Source of the DNA: a virus
DNA: 38,492 bases
IMG/VR virus record: IMGVR_UViG_3300046097_000119
Location: 1 to 38,492 of that record
Direction: 5' to 3' (one strand)
The position numbers were made by a program, and so were the translations under genes. Below are positions 7,712 through 35,001 of the stretch, one piece after another. The notes beneath the pieces are model-generated. The model saw nothing but the letters and a program-made list of their open reading frames with translations. It was not told the DNA's origin and made no database searches. Each line of letters opens with the position of its first letter. The first letter of the stretch is position 1.

Positions 7712-9077
7712 ACAAAAAGTAAATGAATGCTGGAAGCCGCTATTTATAAAGCGCAAGGGTGTTCGTTATGTCATCATCATGGGTGGTCGTGGTGCTGGTC
7801 GTTCTTATGTTGCCAGTCAATATGCTCTAGCTAAGTTAATCGATCCAGGTTATTTCCGTTGTGCCATCATGCGTTTGGTCCACAGTGACATCCGCAAGTC
7901 TATCTATCAGGAAATTGTGGACCGTATTGATGACCAAGGTGTGACTAACAATATCCGAATCAATGATTCTGATATGCGTTTTAGGTATAAATTTAAGAAG
8001 AAAAAAGAAAATCCTGAAGATGGTGATATCTATCAAGAGAATAGTATCAATGCTATTGGTTTTCGTACTTCAGATAAACAGCAGTCAGCCAAATTGAAAT
8101 CACTTGCTGGTTACACTGATGTGATTATTGAAGAAGCTGAAGAAATTGGTGAAGCTGAATTCATGCAGCTAGACGATTCATTACGTACTGTTAAAAGTGA
8201 TATTACAGTTGTGTTGTGTATGAACACACCGGCTAAGAATCACTGGATTATCAAGCGATTCTTTGACCTTGAACCAGTGGCTGAAGCGCCTGGATTCAAT
8301 AAGCCAGTGCTTAAAAAAGAATGTTATGAAGATACAGAATTCTTGTACTTTAACTACCGTTCTAACTTGAACAACTTGGATGCACACACTATCAAGCGAT
8401 ATCAAGCGTACAAAAATACCAAGCCTAATCACTATTGGCACAAGATTGAAGGATTATGTCCTGATGTTGTAAGTGGCAAAATCTATTCTGGTTGGACATT
8501 GCGTGATGATGTACCGCATGAAGCTAAGCTTGTTGGTCGTGGTCTTGACTTTGGTTGGTGGCCTGATCCGTTGCACTTGTGTAACGTGTACTACTATGAC
8601 GGTGGCTATATCTTGGACCAGCTAAAACATGGTAACTACATCAACAATGCTGATGTAGCATTAGCCATTAAGAATGATGACAAAAATAACCAGCGTGCTT
8701 TGACGGTAGCTGATTCCGCTGAACCAAAATCCATTCAAGCCATTGAAGATTTAGGTGTGAATATCATTGGCTGTACCAAAGGCCAAGGTTCAGTCGAACA
8801 CCGTATCAAGGTAGTTAGTGGATTACGTATTTCAGTTACCAGACGGTCCAAAGATTTGTGGGATGGTTATGAGAATTACGCGTACAAAGAAGACAAAGAT
8901 GGTGTTTCGCTTGGTGTGCCGGCTCATTTAGGTTCTGATCCAATGGATGCTGCTGGTTATTGTTTGGTTGAAATAGTTGATGAACTAGATCCACAACAAG
9001 AAGAAAAGGAACGTGTTCGACACCATGTCGATCACGTTAACTTTGTTAACATGGCACAACAGAAGCATGGTCTTTAG
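7695..9077 (+). CDS. terL: Terminase large subunit
   Basis: A 460-aa packaging motor with an ATPase and a nuclease domain. It has the Walker A-like GGRGAGRS (30-37), a Walker B segment TDVIIEEAEEI (141-151), and the nuclease acidic residues in GLDFGWWPDP (D285), TVADSAEPKSI (D340) and DPMDAAGY near the C-terminus. This layout matches the PBSX-type Terminase_3 family. The ATG at 7695 is preferred over a TTG 15 nt upstream, because the preceding five codons add nothing conserved. It acts at the portal to cut and pump DNA. Confidence 0.93.
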   Translation: MTLVVKQKVNECWKPLFIKRKGVRYVIIMGGRGAGRSYVASQYALAKLIDPGYFRCAIMRLVHSDIRKSIYQEIVDRIDDQGVTNNIRINDSDMRFRYKFKKKKENPEDGDIYQENSINAIGFRTSDKQQSAKLKSLAGYTDVIIEEAEEIGEAEFMQLDDSLRTVKSDITVVLCMNTPAKNHWIIKRFFDLEPVAEAPGFNKPVLKKECYEDTEFLYFNYRSNLNNLDAHTIKRYQAYKNTKPNHYWHKIEGLCPDVVSGKIYSGWTLRDDVPHEAKLVGRGLDFGWWPDPLHLCNVYYYDGGYILDQLKHGNYINNADVALAIKNDDKNNQRALTVADSAEPKSIQAIEDLGVNIIGCTKGQGSVEHRIKVVSGLRISVTRRSKDLWDGYENYAYKEDKDGVSLGVPAHLGSDPMDAAGYCLVEIVDELDPQQEEKERVRHHVDHVNFVNMAQQKHGL

Positions 9078-9079
9078 TG

Positions 9080-9085
9080 TATAAT
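9080..9085 (+). promoter_or_regulatory. -10 box of portal gene promoter (leaderless)
   Basis: A perfect TATAAT follows the terL stop codon by two bases and ends 8 nt before the portal ATG at 9094. It fits the leaderless pattern seen at ten other genes here. No matching -35 was found. Confidence 0.55.
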
Positions 9086-9093
9086 ATTTGCAT

Positions 9094-10851
9094 ATGAAAG
9101 TACTTGATAACATGACAGGTGAAATCCATGAATACATTTTTGGTGTCACCCATCTTGACGAATCAATTCCATATTCTGAATACAAGCTAAAGCGGCGTAT
9201 TCAAATGTTCAAGAACAAGTACTATCCTACTGGCAAAATTACACCTGATGGTGACTATGAATTCTGGTTCGACATTATTCATCCAGCCGTCAATTCTGAA
9301 GTGAAGAATATCGACTTTGACACGAAACACTTTTTAATATTTTCCAAAGCACCAATCGAAGATTTTGCTGCTGTGTACGTGATCAATCTTAGTATTGATG
9401 AATTCATGTGGCAGAACGGTACTGCTGAAGAATTGAATGAATCAGTTGAAGACTATTCAGCTGATGGTAACCTCCTTTTTGAAAAGACAGCTGATGGTTA
9501 TGAGCGCTGTGACATGCAAAATACGTTTATTGTAAACCAGACAGCACGGACCGTTGATGATACTGACATTATCAAGCGTTTCTACATGACACAGGCTGAA
9601 CTACGTGGCATGAGTGGTGTGTACAAGAATGTTAATGATGTGATTGATAAGTGTGGCAACACATTTTTTTCACGTACTGAAAAAGGTATTGGCGAAATCC
9701 GCACTAAGAAGCTGTATGAGATTTACCGCCGTGATGGTGAAATTAGTGAACGTGAACTATTTGAAGCGCAAGGTAAAAAGGGTGGTGATGCCAACAAATA
9801 CATTTTGTGCCGTATCATTGCTGCTGGACTTAAAAAGGGTAAGTCATCAAATTGCTTCATTCTTTTTGCTGAAAAGATGGATGGCAAGATGTCTGACTAC
9901 TACATTGAATCGCACCGTGGTCCGTATAAAGGCAAGTGGTGGCGTGAAGGTTTGTATGAACTTGGTTTTGACTACCAGATTCGATACAACGATATTTCAA
10001 ACCAAATTGCACGTGGTCTTGAATGGGCTTCAAAGATTATCTTTAGACACAAGGATAAACAAACACTTCAAAACCTACGCACACAACTGAAGAATGGTTC
10101 AATGATTAAGTCTGAAGATATTCAGCAGATTGCTGTGTCTATCCAAGGATTTGCTGAACTTGTAAATGACCGCAATGCTATTCTTCAGCAATGGAATGAC
10201 CTTTCAAACTCACTTGAAGTAGTCCAAGGTAAGAATCTACCATCACAAACAGCATTCCGTACTGCTGCACAGATGGATGTAAACGCTACTAAGCTGTATG
10301 TATTCCTACGTCAAAAGCTTGCGCTTTCATATCGCAAAGTATTTGCTGAATTTGTCATGCCAGATATGGTTATGACCATGACATCAAAGGACATCATCCG
10401 TGTGACTGGTGATCCAATGTTCTTGGACCGATTCCGCAAGATGGCTGTTGATGCTTGGTATATTGAAAACTTAGTTGACCTTGGACCGCACACCAATGAA
10501 ATGGCACAGTTCATTAAGGACACTAAGTTTGATGAATTCAAACAGTCTGATCCGGTCATTGAGAATGTGAAAGAGATTTGGAAAAATGTTTTGCCACGAC
10601 TACAGGTCACTATTGTTGGTGAAAACTATCTGATTGAACAGATTCAGGATATTTCAGAACTCATTTCATACGAACAAGATCCAATTCGCCGCGCTTACCT
10701 ACTTGACCTTATCTATGCAGCTAAAGGTATTCCAGTGCCACCAGCTGTTTCAATGGAAGCGCTACAAAATTCTAGTGGTCAACCACTTCAAACTGAAAAG
10801 AAAGGTAGCTTTGCTGTTCCTAAAAAAGAAGAAGAACCAGTTAAAGCATAA
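9094..10851 (+). CDS. Portal protein
   Basis: A 585-aa protein directly downstream of terL, the standard place for the portal. It forms the dodecameric ring at the packaging vertex. It is rich in mixed alpha/beta sequence with a long helical C-terminal half (LRQKLALSYRKVFAEFVM, about 410-430) and a low-complexity charged tail (KKEEEPVKA). No strong motif is diagnostic; the call rests on size, order and the helical stem-like region. The ATG at 9094 is chosen over a TTG two codons earlier, because that TTG lies only a few bases after the -10 box. Confidence 0.8.
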   Translation: MKVLDNMTGEIHEYIFGVTHLDESIPYSEYKLKRRIQMFKNKYYPTGKITPDGDYEFWFDIIHPAVNSEVKNIDFDTKHFLIFSKAPIEDFAAVYVINLSIDEFMWQNGTAEELNESVEDYSADGNLLFEKTADGYERCDMQNTFIVNQTARTVDDTDIIKRFYMTQAELRGMSGVYKNVNDVIDKCGNTFFSRTEKGIGEIRTKKLYEIYRRDGEISERELFEAQGKKGGDANKYILCRIIAAGLKKGKSSNCFILFAEKMDGKMSDYYIESHRGPYKGKWWREGLYELGFDYQIRYNDISNQIARGLEWASKIIFRHKDKQTLQNLRTQLKNGSMIKSEDIQQIAVSIQGFAELVNDRNAILQQWNDLSNSLEVVQGKNLPSQTAFRTAAQMDVNATKLYVFLRQKLALSYRKVFAEFVMPDMVMTMTSKDIIRVTGDPMFLDRFRKMAVDAWYIENLVDLGPHTNEMAQFIKDTKFDEFKQSDPVIENVKEIWKNVLPRLQVTIVGENYLIEQIQDISELISYEQDPIRRAYLLDLIYAAKGIPVPPAVSMEALQNSSGQPLQTEKKGSFAVPKKEEEPVKA

Positions 10852-20473: not shown

Positions 20474-22957
20474 ATGCCAATTGTTTCATTTAAAGAGTTT
20501 GGTGCTGGATTACCAGTTAAGCAAGTAAATCCACCAGCGCCACGTATACCAGAACCAGAAAAGCCACAAGGTAACATGCTTGGTCGTATCTTAAAAGATG
20601 CGCCAGGTGATATTGTTGAAACTTTCAAAGGTGTCATTGGCGCTGGTCGTGGTGGTGCAGAAAACTTTGCACAAGCGTTTCAACAGCCTGGATTATCTAT
20701 TCCGCAACGTGTCGTTGGTGCAGCCGTAGCGCCGCTTTCAGCGGTTGTTAATGCTGGTGGTGAAGCACTTAAAGGTGGTGCCAAGCTACTTACTACTGAT
20801 GAGTTTGAAGAACAAACTAATAAAGCATTGGTTGAAGTTGGTAAGTCAGCTATGAATAGTCAGGCTGGTATGGCTTTGCGTGCTTTTTATGAAAGTTTGC
20901 CTGATGACCAAAAATTTACAGTGACAAATATTATTGCGCCAGTTGGAAATGTCATGACTGCTGGTTTTGGTGGTGGTGCTGTTAATGCTACTAAATCAGC
21001 GCTTAGAAGCACGGTAAAAGAAACAGTGAAGCGAACGTCACAAGAAGCTGCTGAAGCCATTATACGGTCAGCCAATCCGGTCACAGAAGCGGTTGAAACA
21101 ACGGCTGAAACAGCTATTAAAACGGCTGACATGTCAGCTAATCCGGTTTTAGATACTTTGAAAGGTGCTAGTACTCAAATTAAAGATTATGCTAAGCGTA
21201 CCGCTAATGAAGCACAAGACACAGCTGTTGAATCACGTAGGTTGGCACAAATGCCAAAGCCAAAAGCACAGCTAATTCGAAACGGTGCTGATGAAAGAAT
21301 TGTGAATGTGGTTGAAAGAATGACACCTGAAGAAGTAAGGGTGGTTCGAGAATCGATAGCTCAATCAAGAGTATACGAAAAATTGCCTGAAGATCCTAAA
21401 AACCACCCTAAAGTAATTGCTGGTCGTGAATTTATGAAGCCAGTTGGATTTGTAATTGATCAACGTAAACAAGTTGGTACGAAGCTTGGTGAAGCGCGTA
21501 AAAATTTAAGCCAGACACGTAACATTGACACTAATGAAGCTTTTCGTAATTTTCATGAATACTTAAAGACTACGTATCAAATACAACTTGATAAAGATGG
21601 AAAAATTATTCCTGAAACTGGTACTTTGGCAACAGGTGATGTGCCGCAAATTCAAAAACTATACGACCAATTAAAGGGTAGTAAACTTAATTCACAAACT
21701 GAACTGGATCAGTGGTTGCAACGTAGCTTAAAGGATTACGATTTGGTACAGAAACGTGAACAAACTTTTAGTGAAGAAGTTCCTAAAATTGCTGAAGTGG
21801 CACGTGGCGAAGTTAGTAAACTAATGCCTGATAATTATAATCAATTGCGCACACAGTATGCACAAATGTCTAAACCATTAAATGAAGTTGTTAAACTACT
21901 TCAATACAAAGGTAGTCTTGACCAACTTACTGCTAAAGAATTAAAGGCTGCTGAAGTAGCATTACGCGTTCTTGGTAACGCTGCTGACCGGCCACAATCA
22001 GTAATTGATGACATTCTTGAAATAGCTACAGAAAATGGCTACAAATCAAATGTAGACATTAATCGCTTACTTTATGTCACTGACCAGCTTGAAGATTTGT
22101 ATGATGTAACACCACCGCGTGGCTTTAGTGGAAGTGCTACACGTGGTATCAACCAATCAAGCGCCGGAACAGCTATAGATGCTGCTACATTCAACGTAGG
22201 CGGCCTATTTGACCGTGCTATGAGTTCACGTGCATCACAAAAAGAGATTCAAGAATCATTTGAAGCCTACGTTCAATACCTTGATGGCGGTGGTGAAAAA
22301 GGTGCTTTCGTGCCAGCCCAGCAAAAAAAAACTGAAAAAATCGGAATAGAACAAGAAGTTGATGAACTAATTTCTAAAGCACCAGAATCGAAACAGTATA
22401 TTGATGAAATCGCTGATTCTGTAGCGGCTGATATTCCAAATGTTCGTGTAGCTAAAGCGCCAATCAAATCAAAGGACCGCGCTATTGAAAAGATAATGTT
22501 TGAAGAAGCTGGTGATGTCACTAAATTACGTGACCTTGCGCGTAATTCAATTGTCCCAATGGATAGTAAGGCGCTTGCTGATTCTCTTGCACGAATGGAT
22601 GAAGTACTTTTACAAACTAAAGGTGATGGTTTGTTCGCTAGAAAGAAAATCCAAGAACCAGAAAAGTTTAGTGGTTACGGTGGTGTAATTTATAACATTG
22701 AAACACCAAATGGAATGATTGCTGAAATTCAGGTAGTTAAACCAGGAATGATATTTGGCAAAATGCTACCTAAAGATGCTAAAGAAATTCTTGGTGAAGA
22801 TCTATTTAACAAGATTGCAGCTGACACCGGCATTGAACCAGGGTATGGCCACAAGCTATATGAAGATCTTAGAAATCTTTCAATTGCTGATCTTGAAGGT
22901 GTAAAAGGTCAAGCGCTGATTAAAGAATCAGTTGACTATTACAATAAGCTAAGGTAA
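20474..22957 (+). CDS. Ejection-type virion protein with C-terminal RelA/SpoT-like domain
   Basis: An 827-aa protein, one base after the preceding gene. Residues 1-30 are Pro-rich; about 45-200 is Ala/Gly-rich and may contact membrane (VVGAAVAPLSAVVNAGGEAL); about 270-600 is helical. Residues about 650-827 resemble RelA/SpoT nucleotidyltransferase folds: APIKSKDRAIEKI (662-674), LRDLARNSIV with D687, FSGYGGVIYNIETPNG (732-747), AEIQV with E751 and Q753, and GYGHKLYEDLR (790-800). D687 and E751 sit where the family's metal-binding Asp and Glu lie, so it may be active. The protein is predicted to be packaged and injected. The structural part is supported by context, the domain by motif only. 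Confidence 0.6.
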   Translation: MPIVSFKEFGAGLPVKQVNPPAPRIPEPEKPQGNMLGRILKDAPGDIVETFKGVIGAGRGGAENFAQAFQQPGLSIPQRVVGAAVAPLSAVVNAGGEALKGGAKLLTTDEFEEQTNKALVEVGKSAMNSQAGMALRAFYESLPDDQKFTVTNIIAPVGNVMTAGFGGGAVNATKSALRSTVKETVKRTSQEAAEAIIRSANPVTEAVETTAETAIKTADMSANPVLDTLKGASTQIKDYAKRTANEAQDTAVESRRLAQMPKPKAQLIRNGADERIVNVVERMTPEEVRVVRESIAQSRVYEKLPEDPKNHPKVIAGREFMKPVGFVIDQRKQVGTKLGEARKNLSQTRNIDTNEAFRNFHEYLKTTYQIQLDKDGKIIPETGTLATGDVPQIQKLYDQLKGSKLNSQTELDQWLQRSLKDYDLVQKREQTFSEEVPKIAEVARGEVSKLMPDNYNQLRTQYAQMSKPLNEVVKLLQYKGSLDQLTAKELKAAEVALRVLGNAADRPQSVIDDILEIATENGYKSNVDINRLLYVTDQLEDLYDVTPPRGFSGSATRGINQSSAGTAIDAATFNVGGLFDRAMSSRASQKEIQESFEAYVQYLDGGGEKGAFVPAQQKKTEKIGIEQEVDELISKAPESKQYIDEIADSVAADIPNVRVAKAPIKSKDRAIEKIMFEEAGDVTKLRDLARNSIVPMDSKALADSLARMDEVLLQTKGDGLFARKKIQEPEKFSGYGGVIYNIETPNGMIAEIQVVKPGMIFGKMLPKDAKEILGEDLFNKIAADTGIEPGYGHKLYEDLRNLSIADLEGVKGQALIKESVDYYNKLR

Positions 22958-22967
22958 GCTTTAATAT

Positions 22968-23207
22968 ATGAATTACTACAAATCAGAACTTCACGAAAAA
23001 TTAGTACGTACTGATGCGGAACGTGATTTGGCATACGCTAAGCCAATGGATGGTTCTGGTCCTGAATTTGCACTTGCTAAAGGTAGTCCGATTTTGGTTG
23101 ATGCTATCATGACACCAATTTCTAAAGGACAGTACGATAATCCTACACCTGAAGAAGATGAAGGTATTCCAACACGACCAATTACACCGGCACAAAGCAC
23201 TATTTAG
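22968..23207 (+). CDS. Hypothetical protein, 79 aa
   Basis: A 79-aa protein between the RelA-like ejection protein and the HD hydrolase. The N-terminal half is polar and helical (MNYYKSELHEKLVRTDAERD) and the C-terminal half is acidic, Pro-rich and probably disordered (PTPEEDEGIPTRPITPAQST). It lies 10 nt from the gene before it, so it should be made with the virion proteins. It could be a minor virion protein or a partner of its neighbours; no family recognised. Confidence 0.6.
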   Translation: MNYYKSELHEKLVRTDAERDLAYAKPMDGSGPEFALAKGSPILVDAIMTPISKGQYDNPTPEEDEGIPTRPITPAQSTI

Positions 23208-23236
23208 TTGACGGTTGGCAACCGTTGTGATACACT
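23208..23236 (+). promoter_or_regulatory. Sigma70 promoter with palindromic operator in its spacer
   Basis: -35 TTGACG (23208-23213), a 17-bp spacer and -10 TACACT (23231-23236, preceded by TG-A) end 6 nt before ATG 23243. A perfect 15-bp palindrome ACGGTTGGCAACCGT (23211-23225) covers the end of the -35 and most of the spacer, an ideal place for a repressor. It is the best-formed promoter in the late arm and serves only the HD hydrolase unit. Confidence 0.8.
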
Positions 23237-23242
23237 ATAGGT

Positions 23243-23776
23243 ATGAGTTATCACGACAAGATCAGAAAGGCATTAAAATTTGCTGCCAAGAAACACGCTG
23301 GACAGTTCCGTAAAGATACGAATATTCCTTATTTAGTTCATCCAGTTGAGGTTGGACTTTATTTGCAGAATCTAGGCATGGCACATGACACTATTATTGC
23401 CGGTTATCTTCACGACACCATAGAAGATACTGACACTACTTACGATGAATTGAAATACAACTTTGGTGAAGGTGTCGCTGATGTGGTCCTTGAACTGTCT
23501 GAAATAAGTAAGAAAAGAGCCTTGGTAAAAGCTCAAGGTTATTCACCTGAAGCTGTCAAAGTAAAGACGGCTGATTTGATGTGCAATGTTACTGACATTT
23601 TGGATGAGTACAATGAGATCGGTAACGCTGTTTTTAACAAGTTTGCACATGGCAAAAAGACACTTGATCACTATCGAAATATGGCTCAAATACTATATGA
23701 AAAGGCTGTTTACTTGCCACAGATTAGAAAAGAACTTTCTATAATTTTGACAAAGTTAGATTATATGAGTAATTAA
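23243..23776 (+). CDS. HD-domain alarmone hydrolase (small alarmone hydrolase, MESH1/SpoT-like)
   Basis: A 177-aa single-domain protein with the RSH hydrolase motifs: HAGQFRKD and YLVHPVEV (H33), AGYLHDTIEDT (H57-D58 and E61-D62), an FGEGVADVV segment, and KTADLMCN (D111, N115). These provide the metal and catalytic residues of Mn-dependent (p)ppGpp 3'-pyrophosphohydrolases, and the size fits the stand-alone small alarmone hydrolases. It would cleave (p)ppGpp or (p)ppApp in the cytoplasm. It is set among virion genes but has its own regulated leaderless promoter, and lies 285 bp after the RelA-like domain. Alternative role: damping the host stringent response. Confidence 0.85.
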   Translation: MSYHDKIRKALKFAAKKHAGQFRKDTNIPYLVHPVEVGLYLQNLGMAHDTIIAGYLHDTIEDTDTTYDELKYNFGEGVADVVLELSEISKKRALVKAQGYSPEAVKVKTADLMCNVTDILDEYNEIGNAVFNKFAHGKKTLDHYRNMAQILYEKAVYLPQIRKELSIILTKLDYMSN

Positions 23777-23782
23777 ATAATT

Positions 23783-23977
23783 ATGAAAGAATACACAATT
23801 GGTCAAGTTTTCCGCAACAAACTACTACTAAACGCTTCAGGCAAACCGTACAAAGACAAAGCCAGTGTTTCTAATGTGCTGTCAAAATATCCGCACACTG
23901 TGCGCAATACACCAAACGGACCAGCGAAAATTTACACAGAAAAAACTATTAAAGAGGTTAATAAGCGGTGGAACTAA
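23783..23977 (+). CDS. Small basic protein, 64 aa, possible DNA-binding partner of the HD gene
   Basis: A 64-aa basic protein (MKEYTIGQVFRNKLLLNASG, then KPYKDKASVSNVLSKYPHTV) 6 nt after the hydrolase gene, so co-transcribed with it. The order of short helices and a VSNVLSK segment could form a winged-helix fold, which would make it a candidate binder of the palindrome at 23211-23225. That is a guess from composition and position; no family is recognised with confidence. Confidence 0.6.
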   Translation: MKEYTIGQVFRNKLLLNASGKPYKDKASVSNVLSKYPHTVRNTPNGPAKIYTEKTIKEVNKRWN

Positions 23978-34677: not shown

Positions 34678-35001
34678 CTATTTAAGTAAGATATCCACAT
34701 CTTCAGGCTTCTTCACAACCAAGTATTTTCCACCATTTCGAATGCACCTTTTCTTAAAAAGTATCTGGTGTTCAGACATGCGGTCATTGCCGGCTTTTAT
34801 CTCAATACCTACAAACTGACCACGGATGATACAAATGATGTCTGGCACCCCCTTCATGCCGCTGTGTGAGCGATATGCACCATAACCACTGTTTAGCTTA
34901 GGATCAAATATCGGTAGATTGTTTTGCCGCCAGAAAAAGACACCGGCTTCAGTCAGTTTTTTTACTACTTTGGCGGTCAGCTTGTTGGCTGGTGTACTCA
35001 T
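34678..35001 (-). CDS. VRR-NUC / Holliday-junction-resolvase-type nuclease
   Basis: A 107-aa PD-(D/E)XK nuclease domain, with GVPDIICIIRGQFVGIEIKA (51-70) supplying D54, E67 and K69, and SEHQILFKK (Q79) the helix that follows. Size and motif order match the small VRR-NUC family of phages, which cut branched DNA. It could resolve replication or recombination intermediates before packaging. Its start overlaps the stop of the 189-aa gene (ATGA), so the pair is coupled. Confidence 0.85.
   Translation of the reverse strand: MSTPANKLTAKVVKKLTEAGVFFWRQNNLPIFDPKLNSGYGAYRSHSGMKGVPDIICIIRGQFVGIEIKAGNDRMSEHQILFKKRCIRNGGKYLVVKKPEDVDILLK

What the first reader, a model, noticed from the sequence alone, without database searches (positions are those of the whole stretch)
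20474..23977. Virion ejection protein with a RelA/SpoT-like domain next to an HD alarmone hydrolase: candidate injected toxin-antidote pair
Seen: the 827-aa protein in the ejection-protein position ends in a segment with KSKDRAIEK, LRDLARNSIV (D687), SGYGGVIYNIETPNG, AEIQV (E751) and GYGHKLYEDLR. Two genes on is a stand-alone HD hydrolase with RSH motifs (H33, HD57-58, ED61-62, D111). Known: RelA/SpoT-fold toxins (toxSAS, and the T6SS effector Tas1 making (p)ppApp) are neutralised by small alarmone hydrolases, and some phages encode such hydrolases. Inference: this phage may inject an alarmone or nucleotide pyrophosphokinase with its DNA and later make the hydrolase to reverse it, or use the pair against rival phages or host growth control. 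I know of no described virion-borne synthetase with a co-encoded hydrolase.
Basis: partly seen in the sequence, partly recalled or inferred. Interest (0 to 1): 0.92.

Follow-up and report, generated by a model that had tools for sequence, protein, structure and literature searches.

The report
Phage ejection-like protein carrying alarmone-toxin cassette
A short-tailed-type phage appears to carry, on the end of a protein that probably enters the host with its DNA, an enzyme related to a bacterial toxin that wastes the cell's ATP, together with two nearby genes that look like its antidotes; the same kind of cassette is known from other phages and from bacterial weapons, but on different delivery proteins.

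Summary
Residues 640-827 of the 827-aa ORF (22391-22954) are an Apk/Tas1-type RelA/SpoT-fold pyrophosphokinase: Tas1 (PDB 6ox6) by sequence at E=7.8e-24, and top structural hit of a pLDDT-94 model, with D687 and E751 kept. The HD gene (23243-23776) is a small alarmone hydrolase with all metal and catalytic residues.

Its modest-confidence model, built without Tis1 sequences, has the Tas1 inhibitor Tis1 as best PDB match (probability 0.98, but E=0.36). The locus thus looks like a toxin / direct inhibitor / hydrolase cassette in the order described for phage MuF-Apk2 (apk2-iapK-aph1), so 'not described' is wrong in kind.

What differs is the carrier: a non-MuF protein in ejection-protein position of an apparently virulent, podovirus-like phage. 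In three relatives the same N-terminus carries another C-terminus (Zeta toxin in two, unassigned in one), and no HD gene is present.

Virion packaging, delivery, product and benefit are inferred. The HD gene lies among late structural genes, so protecting the producing cell fits better than 'inject, then reverse'. Verdict: new variant of a known kind.

The parts
20474..22390 (+). N-terminal carrier region (residues 1-639) of the 827-aa protein, in ejection-protein position
   Evidence: Conserved in L001, MW202577, L134 and, over residues 263-589, MW202647; no MuF, Pfam, PHROG, PDB or P22 ejection-protein match
22391..22954 (+). C-terminal Apk/Tas1-type pyrophosphokinase domain (residues 640-827); D687 at 22532-22534, E751 at 22724-22726
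   Evidence: Tas1 6ox6_A E=7.8e-24; model pLDDT 94.2, top fold 6ox6_A; K665, D687, G734, Y735, E751 invariant in 41 homologues
22968..23207 (+). 79-aa ORF, candidate Tis1/IapK-like direct inhibitor
   Evidence: Conserved in L001 at 57%; fills the slot of Tis1 in T6SS loci; best PDB fold 6ox6_B, probability 0.98, TM 0.58-0.60, E=0.36; no sequence match, weak profile score
23243..23776 (+). 177-aa HD-domain small alarmone hydrolase
   Evidence: Pfam HD_4 4.5e-19; solved alarmone hydrolases; metal and catalytic residues invariant; 58% identical in L001

Best explanation
The locus is a polymorphic-toxin-type cassette mounted on a phage virion protein. The C-terminal domain of the 827-aa protein is an Apk/Tas1-family 3'-pyrophosphokinase that most likely moves pyrophosphate from ATP to an adenine nucleotide, making (p)ppApp and draining ATP/ADP. 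The carrier is probably an ejection protein whose C-terminus reaches the host cytoplasm during DNA entry, where the enzyme damages or reprograms the cell. In the virion-producing cell the neighbouring 79-aa protein (Tis1/IapK-like) blocks the enzyme and the HD protein hydrolyses its product, so that the cell stays energised until lysis. The C-terminal domain with its immunity genes is a swappable unit; relatives carry a Zeta-type domain instead. Shown here: enzyme family, active-site conservation, HD family, conserved gene order, the swap. Inferred: packaging, delivery, product, inhibitor function, expression timing, benefit.
For: Tas1 match by sequence and fold; catalytic residues invariant; HD family and active site; 79-aa ORF with Tis1 as best fold match; all three parts conserved in L001; carrier with other C-termini and no HD gene in MW202577, L134 and MW202647; the same Apk/Zeta exchange in a second phage family, L006/L007; HD gene next to the Apk gene in 16 of 18 bacterial loci and in four further phage groups; purifying selection on the domain, dN/dS about 0.12 with high dS; precedent of MuF-Apk2/IapK/Aph1 (PMC12226406) and of T7 gp16, whose C-terminus enters the cytoplasm (PMC8954989).
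Against: No homology of the carrier to any known ejection protein. Syn3 reads GVI, not the GxN reported for Apk enzymes. The 79-aa model has one good replicate of five and its match is not significant by E-value. In L006 the HD gene stays although the toxin is Zeta. Only five members of the carrier family were found. No expression or virion data.
Confidence: 0.6

Rival explanations
1. The injected domain is a host-takeover enzyme rather than a weapon: a brief, tolerated burst of alarmone slows host metabolism or blunts a defence, as T4 Alt modifies host proteins, and the HD protein later resets the pool.
For: The phage looks virulent (no integrase or resolvase in it or in two complete relatives), so killing rivals of a lysogen is not an obvious benefit; injected host-modifying enzymes are known (PMC5512222).
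Against: Exchange with Zeta toxin domains and the toxin-inhibitor-hydrolase order are those of polymorphic toxins; the HD gene lies among late genes; hydrolases are far slower than Apk1 (PMC12691689).
Confidence: 0.2
2. The HD gene is an independent anti-defence hydrolase (for example against host toxSAS enzymes) and lies next to the Apk domain by chance.
For: Related HD genes stand alone in other phages; in L006 the HD gene is kept with a Zeta toxin; in the tree the HD gene groups with phage HD genes while the Apk domain groups with T6SS loci.
Against: HD gene absent from the three relatives without the Apk domain; the adjacency recurs with different carriers and different HD lineages.
Confidence: 0.14
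3. The C-terminal domain is a degenerate or purely structural relic without catalysis.
For: The syn3 acceptor motif departs from GxN.
Against: Catalytic residues invariant; constraint as strong as in the carrier (dN/dS about 0.12 against 0.13); hydrolase and small gene retained.
Confidence: 0.05

Closest known systems
MuF-Apk2 / IapK / Aph1 of temperate phages (PMC12226406)
   Same: Phage-encoded Apk domain at the C-terminus of a virion-type protein, followed by a small inhibitor gene and a hydrolase gene in that order
   Different: Carrier here is not MuF (no Pfam MuF match) and lies after the tail-hub-like gene, not beside the portal; no integrase found; the small protein is not recognisable by sequence; syn3 is GVI, not GxN
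Tas1/Apk1 - Tis1 - hydrolase of T6SS (PDB 6ox6)
   Same: Closest solved relative of the domain; same order with a 77-aa Tis1 gene and an HD gene in fetched loci
   Different: No PAAR/Rhs carrier; phage setting; HD gene from a different HD lineage
RelA/SpoT domains of phage polyvalent proteins (PMC5512222)
   Same: Alarmone-synthetase domain on a phage protein predicted to be injected
   Different: Giant proteins with the domain internal and no HD gene detected (L119-L131)
Podoviral ejection proteins (T7 gp16, P22 gp16)
   Same: Gene position among structural genes; C-terminus of T7 gp16 enters the cytoplasm (PMC8954989)
   Different: No detectable sequence homology; carries an enzymatic toxin-like domain

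Membership tests
Apk/Tas1 branch of RelA/SpoT-fold pyrophosphokinases | Sequence and fold of the synthetase domain | tested here: met
   6ox6_A by sequence E=7.8e-24 and by fold E=1e-14
Apk/Tas1 branch of RelA/SpoT-fold pyrophosphokinases | Catalytic Asp (syn2) and Glu (syn4) | tested here: met
   D687 and E751 invariant in 41 homologues
Apk/Tas1 branch of RelA/SpoT-fold pyrophosphokinases | GxN adenosine-type syn3 signature | tested here: not met
   GVI in window and L001; other phage groups also depart (signature from PMC12226406)
Apk/Tas1 branch of RelA/SpoT-fold pyrophosphokinases | (p)ppApp as product | not testable with these tools
   Needs an enzyme assay
MuF-Apk2 phage toxins | N-terminal MuF domain | tested here: not met
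   No MuF family at E<=1 in Pfam or PHROGs
MuF-Apk2 phage toxins | Downstream inhibitor gene then hydrolase gene | tested here: inconclusive
   HD hydrolase clear; inhibitor identity rests on a fold match, probability 0.98 but E=0.36
Small alarmone hydrolases | HD domain with metal and catalytic residues | tested here: met
   HD_4 4.5e-19; H33, H57, D58, E61, D62, D111 invariant
Tis1/IapK immunity proteins | Sequence similarity to Tis1 | tested here: not met
   No Pfam or PDB sequence match; weak profile score only
Tis1/IapK immunity proteins | Tis1 fold | tested here: inconclusive
   6ox6_B is rank 1 in PDB with TM 0.58-0.60, from a model with one good replicate of five
Polymorphic toxins | One N-terminus with exchangeable C-terminal toxin domains and matching downstream genes | tested here: met
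   Apk in window and L001; Zeta in MW202577 and L134; unassigned in MW202647; HD only with Apk; small sample
Podoviral ejection proteins | Homology to known ejection proteins | tested here: not met
   None to P22 gp7, gp20, gp16 or to PDB chains; such proteins diverge strongly
Podoviral ejection proteins | Present in virion and ejected into the host | not testable with these tools
   Needs virion proteomics or delivery assay

The most novel reading that the evidence does not exclude
Ejection proteins of virulent podovirus-like phages form a new class of polymorphic-toxin carrier: the C-terminal domain that enters the host cytoplasm is exchanged between toxin types (Apk, Zeta, others) together with its immunity genes, so that virulent phages deliver enzymatic toxins with their DNA.
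Probability: 0.42. Interest if true: 0.76.

Novelty: new variant of a known kind. Interest (0 to 1): 0.62.

Why it matters
Phage-borne toxins of this type have been tied to MuF proteins of temperate phages; [quoted passage not shown] A swappable toxin cassette on a probable ejection protein of an apparently virulent phage would add a carrier class and pose a sharp, testable question: why would a lytic phage deliver an ATP-wasting enzyme into the cell it is about to use? It also links host-takeover enzymes such as T4 Alt with bacterial polymorphic toxins. The order toxin, inhibitor, hydrolase recurs with different carriers and different hydrolase lineages, which argues that the hydrolase belongs functionally to the toxin.

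Tried and rejected
Pfam RelA_SpoT on the window: no hit, explained by divergence of the Apk branch. Pattern scans with narrow queries found only the L001 contig or nothing; one N-terminal scan added L134. Homology of the N-terminus, the 707-aa and the 745-aa neighbours to P22 proteins or PDB chains: none. Tis1 by sequence for the 79-aa ORF: no. Promoter/terminator scan: promoter-like matches fewer than in shuffles, terminator-like sites 12 against 6.1 expected; not used. Integrase or resolvase in the window: none. The idea that domain and HD gene came together from one T6SS cassette was dropped: the Apk tree puts the window next to Sphingomonas T6SS loci, the HD tree with phage HD genes; both are quick trees with long branches. 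The main paper on (p)ppApp hydrolases (PMC10083569) is not held, so hydrolase specificity residues were not checked. A host search across a bacterial class failed on a handle error and was not repeated.

Full report
Observation. The window is a whole IMG/VR virus record of 38,492 bases without terminal repeats, so possibly slightly incomplete. ORF 20474-22957 encodes 827 aa and is followed on the same strand by a 79-aa ORF (22968-23207) and a 177-aa HD ORF (23243-23776), after short gaps.

The C-terminal domain. Residues 640-827 match the T6SS toxin Tas1 (6ox6_A) at E=7.8e-24 over 187 residues. A 41-member family profile matches Tas1 at 4.2e-75 and (p)ppGpp synthetases only weakly. The AlphaFold2 model has mean pLDDT 94.2 and Tas1 as top PDB fold (E=1e-14, TM 0.74), then SAS and Rel enzymes. 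K665, D687, G734, Y735 and E751 are invariant in the family. One departure: the syn3 acceptor motif reads GVI where Tas1 has GVN; GxN is the reported adenosine-type signature (PMC12226406), and XkdF-fused members also lack the Asn. The product is therefore probably, not certainly, (p)ppApp.

The HD gene. It has the HD_4 domain, matches solved alarmone hydrolases, and keeps H33, H57, D58, E61, D62 and D111, invariant in 25 homologues.

The gene in between. The 79-aa ORF has no sequence match and only a weak profile score to Tis1. Its model was built from the window and L001 sequences alone; residues 1-60 are at pLDDT 81-89, but only one of five models is good. The best PDB match out of 350,542 chains is 6ox6_B, Tis1 itself (probability 0.98, TM 0.58-0.60, rmsd 1.9; E=0.36, not significant alone). 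In the T6SS loci fetched here the gene in this slot is Tis1, and the match was looked for because of that position. I treat the ORF as a likely, unproven, inhibitor.

Conservation and swapping. L001, another IMG/VR contig, has domain, small ORF and HD gene at 75, 57 and 58% identity. MW202577 (complete, circular) has the same N-terminus to about residue 607 at 61% identity, but its C-terminus is a Zeta-toxin domain, annotated in GenBank as thymidylate kinase; L134 is of the same type. MW202647 has a distant N-terminus (27%) and an unassigned C-terminus. None of these three records contains an HD_4 gene or a relative of the window's HD protein, though the L134 record may be a fragment. The next gene, 23783-23977, is kept in L001 and MW202577, which brackets the exchanged block. 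A second, unrelated phage pair, L006 and L007, shows the same Apk/Zeta exchange on one N-terminus; there the HD gene (188 of 193 residues identical) is kept in both, so coupling is strong but not absolute.

Wider distribution. Apk domains with an HD neighbour occur in Bordetella phage PHB04, L007, faecal phage L087, the XkdF-protease fusions L110-L118 (HD on the opposite strand) and 16 of the 18 bacterial loci fetched. Giant polyvalent proteins carry the domain internally with no HD gene detected. The trees place the window's Apk domain near Sphingomonas T6SS loci but its HD gene with phage HD genes, which suggests repeated assembly of the pair; support is limited by long branches.

Carrier and lifestyle. 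The genome has terminase and major capsid genes, a podophage GP4-type fibre protein (Pfam Gp80, 5.5e-18), a tail-fibre match, and no tape-measure, tail-tube or sheath match among the ORFs scanned. This and gene order make a podovirus likely and put the 827-aa protein in ejection position, but no homology to known ejection proteins was found. No tyrosine integrase or serine recombinase is found in the window, the L001 record or the two complete relatives, so the phage appears virulent.

Mechanism. T7 gp16 is thought to send its C-terminal domain into the host cytoplasm (PMC8954989), and P22 ejects about 12, 12 and 30 copies of its ejection proteins (PMC8402733). A few copies of an Apk1-like enzyme (180,000 per minute, PMC12691689) could plausibly strain an ATP pool; this is inference. 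The same enzyme would threaten the producing cell late in infection, where the neighbouring inhibitor and hydrolase would act. Hydrolases are more than 100 times slower than Apk1, which makes reversal by the HD protein alone unlikely and gives a direct inhibitor its reason.

Comparison. MuF-Apk2 phage toxins have the same downstream order, iapK then aph1 (PMC12226406). RelA/SpoT domains on MuF and polyvalent phage proteins were noted earlier (PMC5512222; PMC5576092). Not found in the literature searched here are the carrier, its exchange between Apk and Zeta, and the apparently virulent setting; that search covers only an open-licence library.

Limits. The window's carrier family has five known members; all function is inferred from sequence and models; there are no virion or biochemical data.

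Noticed in passing
L110-L118 (e.g. L110:7260-8555 +, 8576-8803 +, 8806-9318 -): Apk domain fused to an XkdF-type prohead protease (Pfam Peptidase_S78_2), with a small Tis1-slot gene and an HD gene on the opposite strand.
   Followed up: partly
L086:4077-6339 (Bordetella phage PHB04, MF663786): Protein encoded right after the portal gene carries an unannotated Apk-type domain, followed by a 70-aa ORF and an HD gene.
   Followed up: partly
L006:6146-7726 and L007:6271-7758: Same N-terminus with Zeta toxin in one phage and Apk domain in the other; the small downstream ORF changes with the toxin while the HD gene stays.
   Followed up: yes
L119-L131: Very large phage proteins (about 2,000-4,300 aa) with an internal Apk-type domain and no HD gene detected.
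   Followed up: partly
L002:8001-10637 (MW202577, UOF78922): GenBank product 'thymidylate kinase' is a misleading name; the C-terminus is a Zeta-toxin domain on the ejection-like carrier.
   Followed up: yes
L087:5692-7097 (MT835636, human faecal phage): Stand-alone 204-aa Apk-type protein with a Tis1-like 88-aa ORF (Pfam Tis1_ImmP 4e-4, below cut-off) and an HD gene.
   Followed up: partly
L001:7736-10564: The carrier in L001 contains a long near-exact internal duplication (ATVKETVKRTPQEAAEAVV... repeated), which may be real or an assembly artefact.
   Followed up: no
L001:11438-11938: Gene just after the HD gene in L001 matches Pfam LPD29 (large polyvalent protein associated domain 29, 1.2e-10).
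   Followed up: no
window 34678-35001 (-): Small gene with a VRR-NUC nuclease domain (2.8e-5) in the early region.
   Followed up: no
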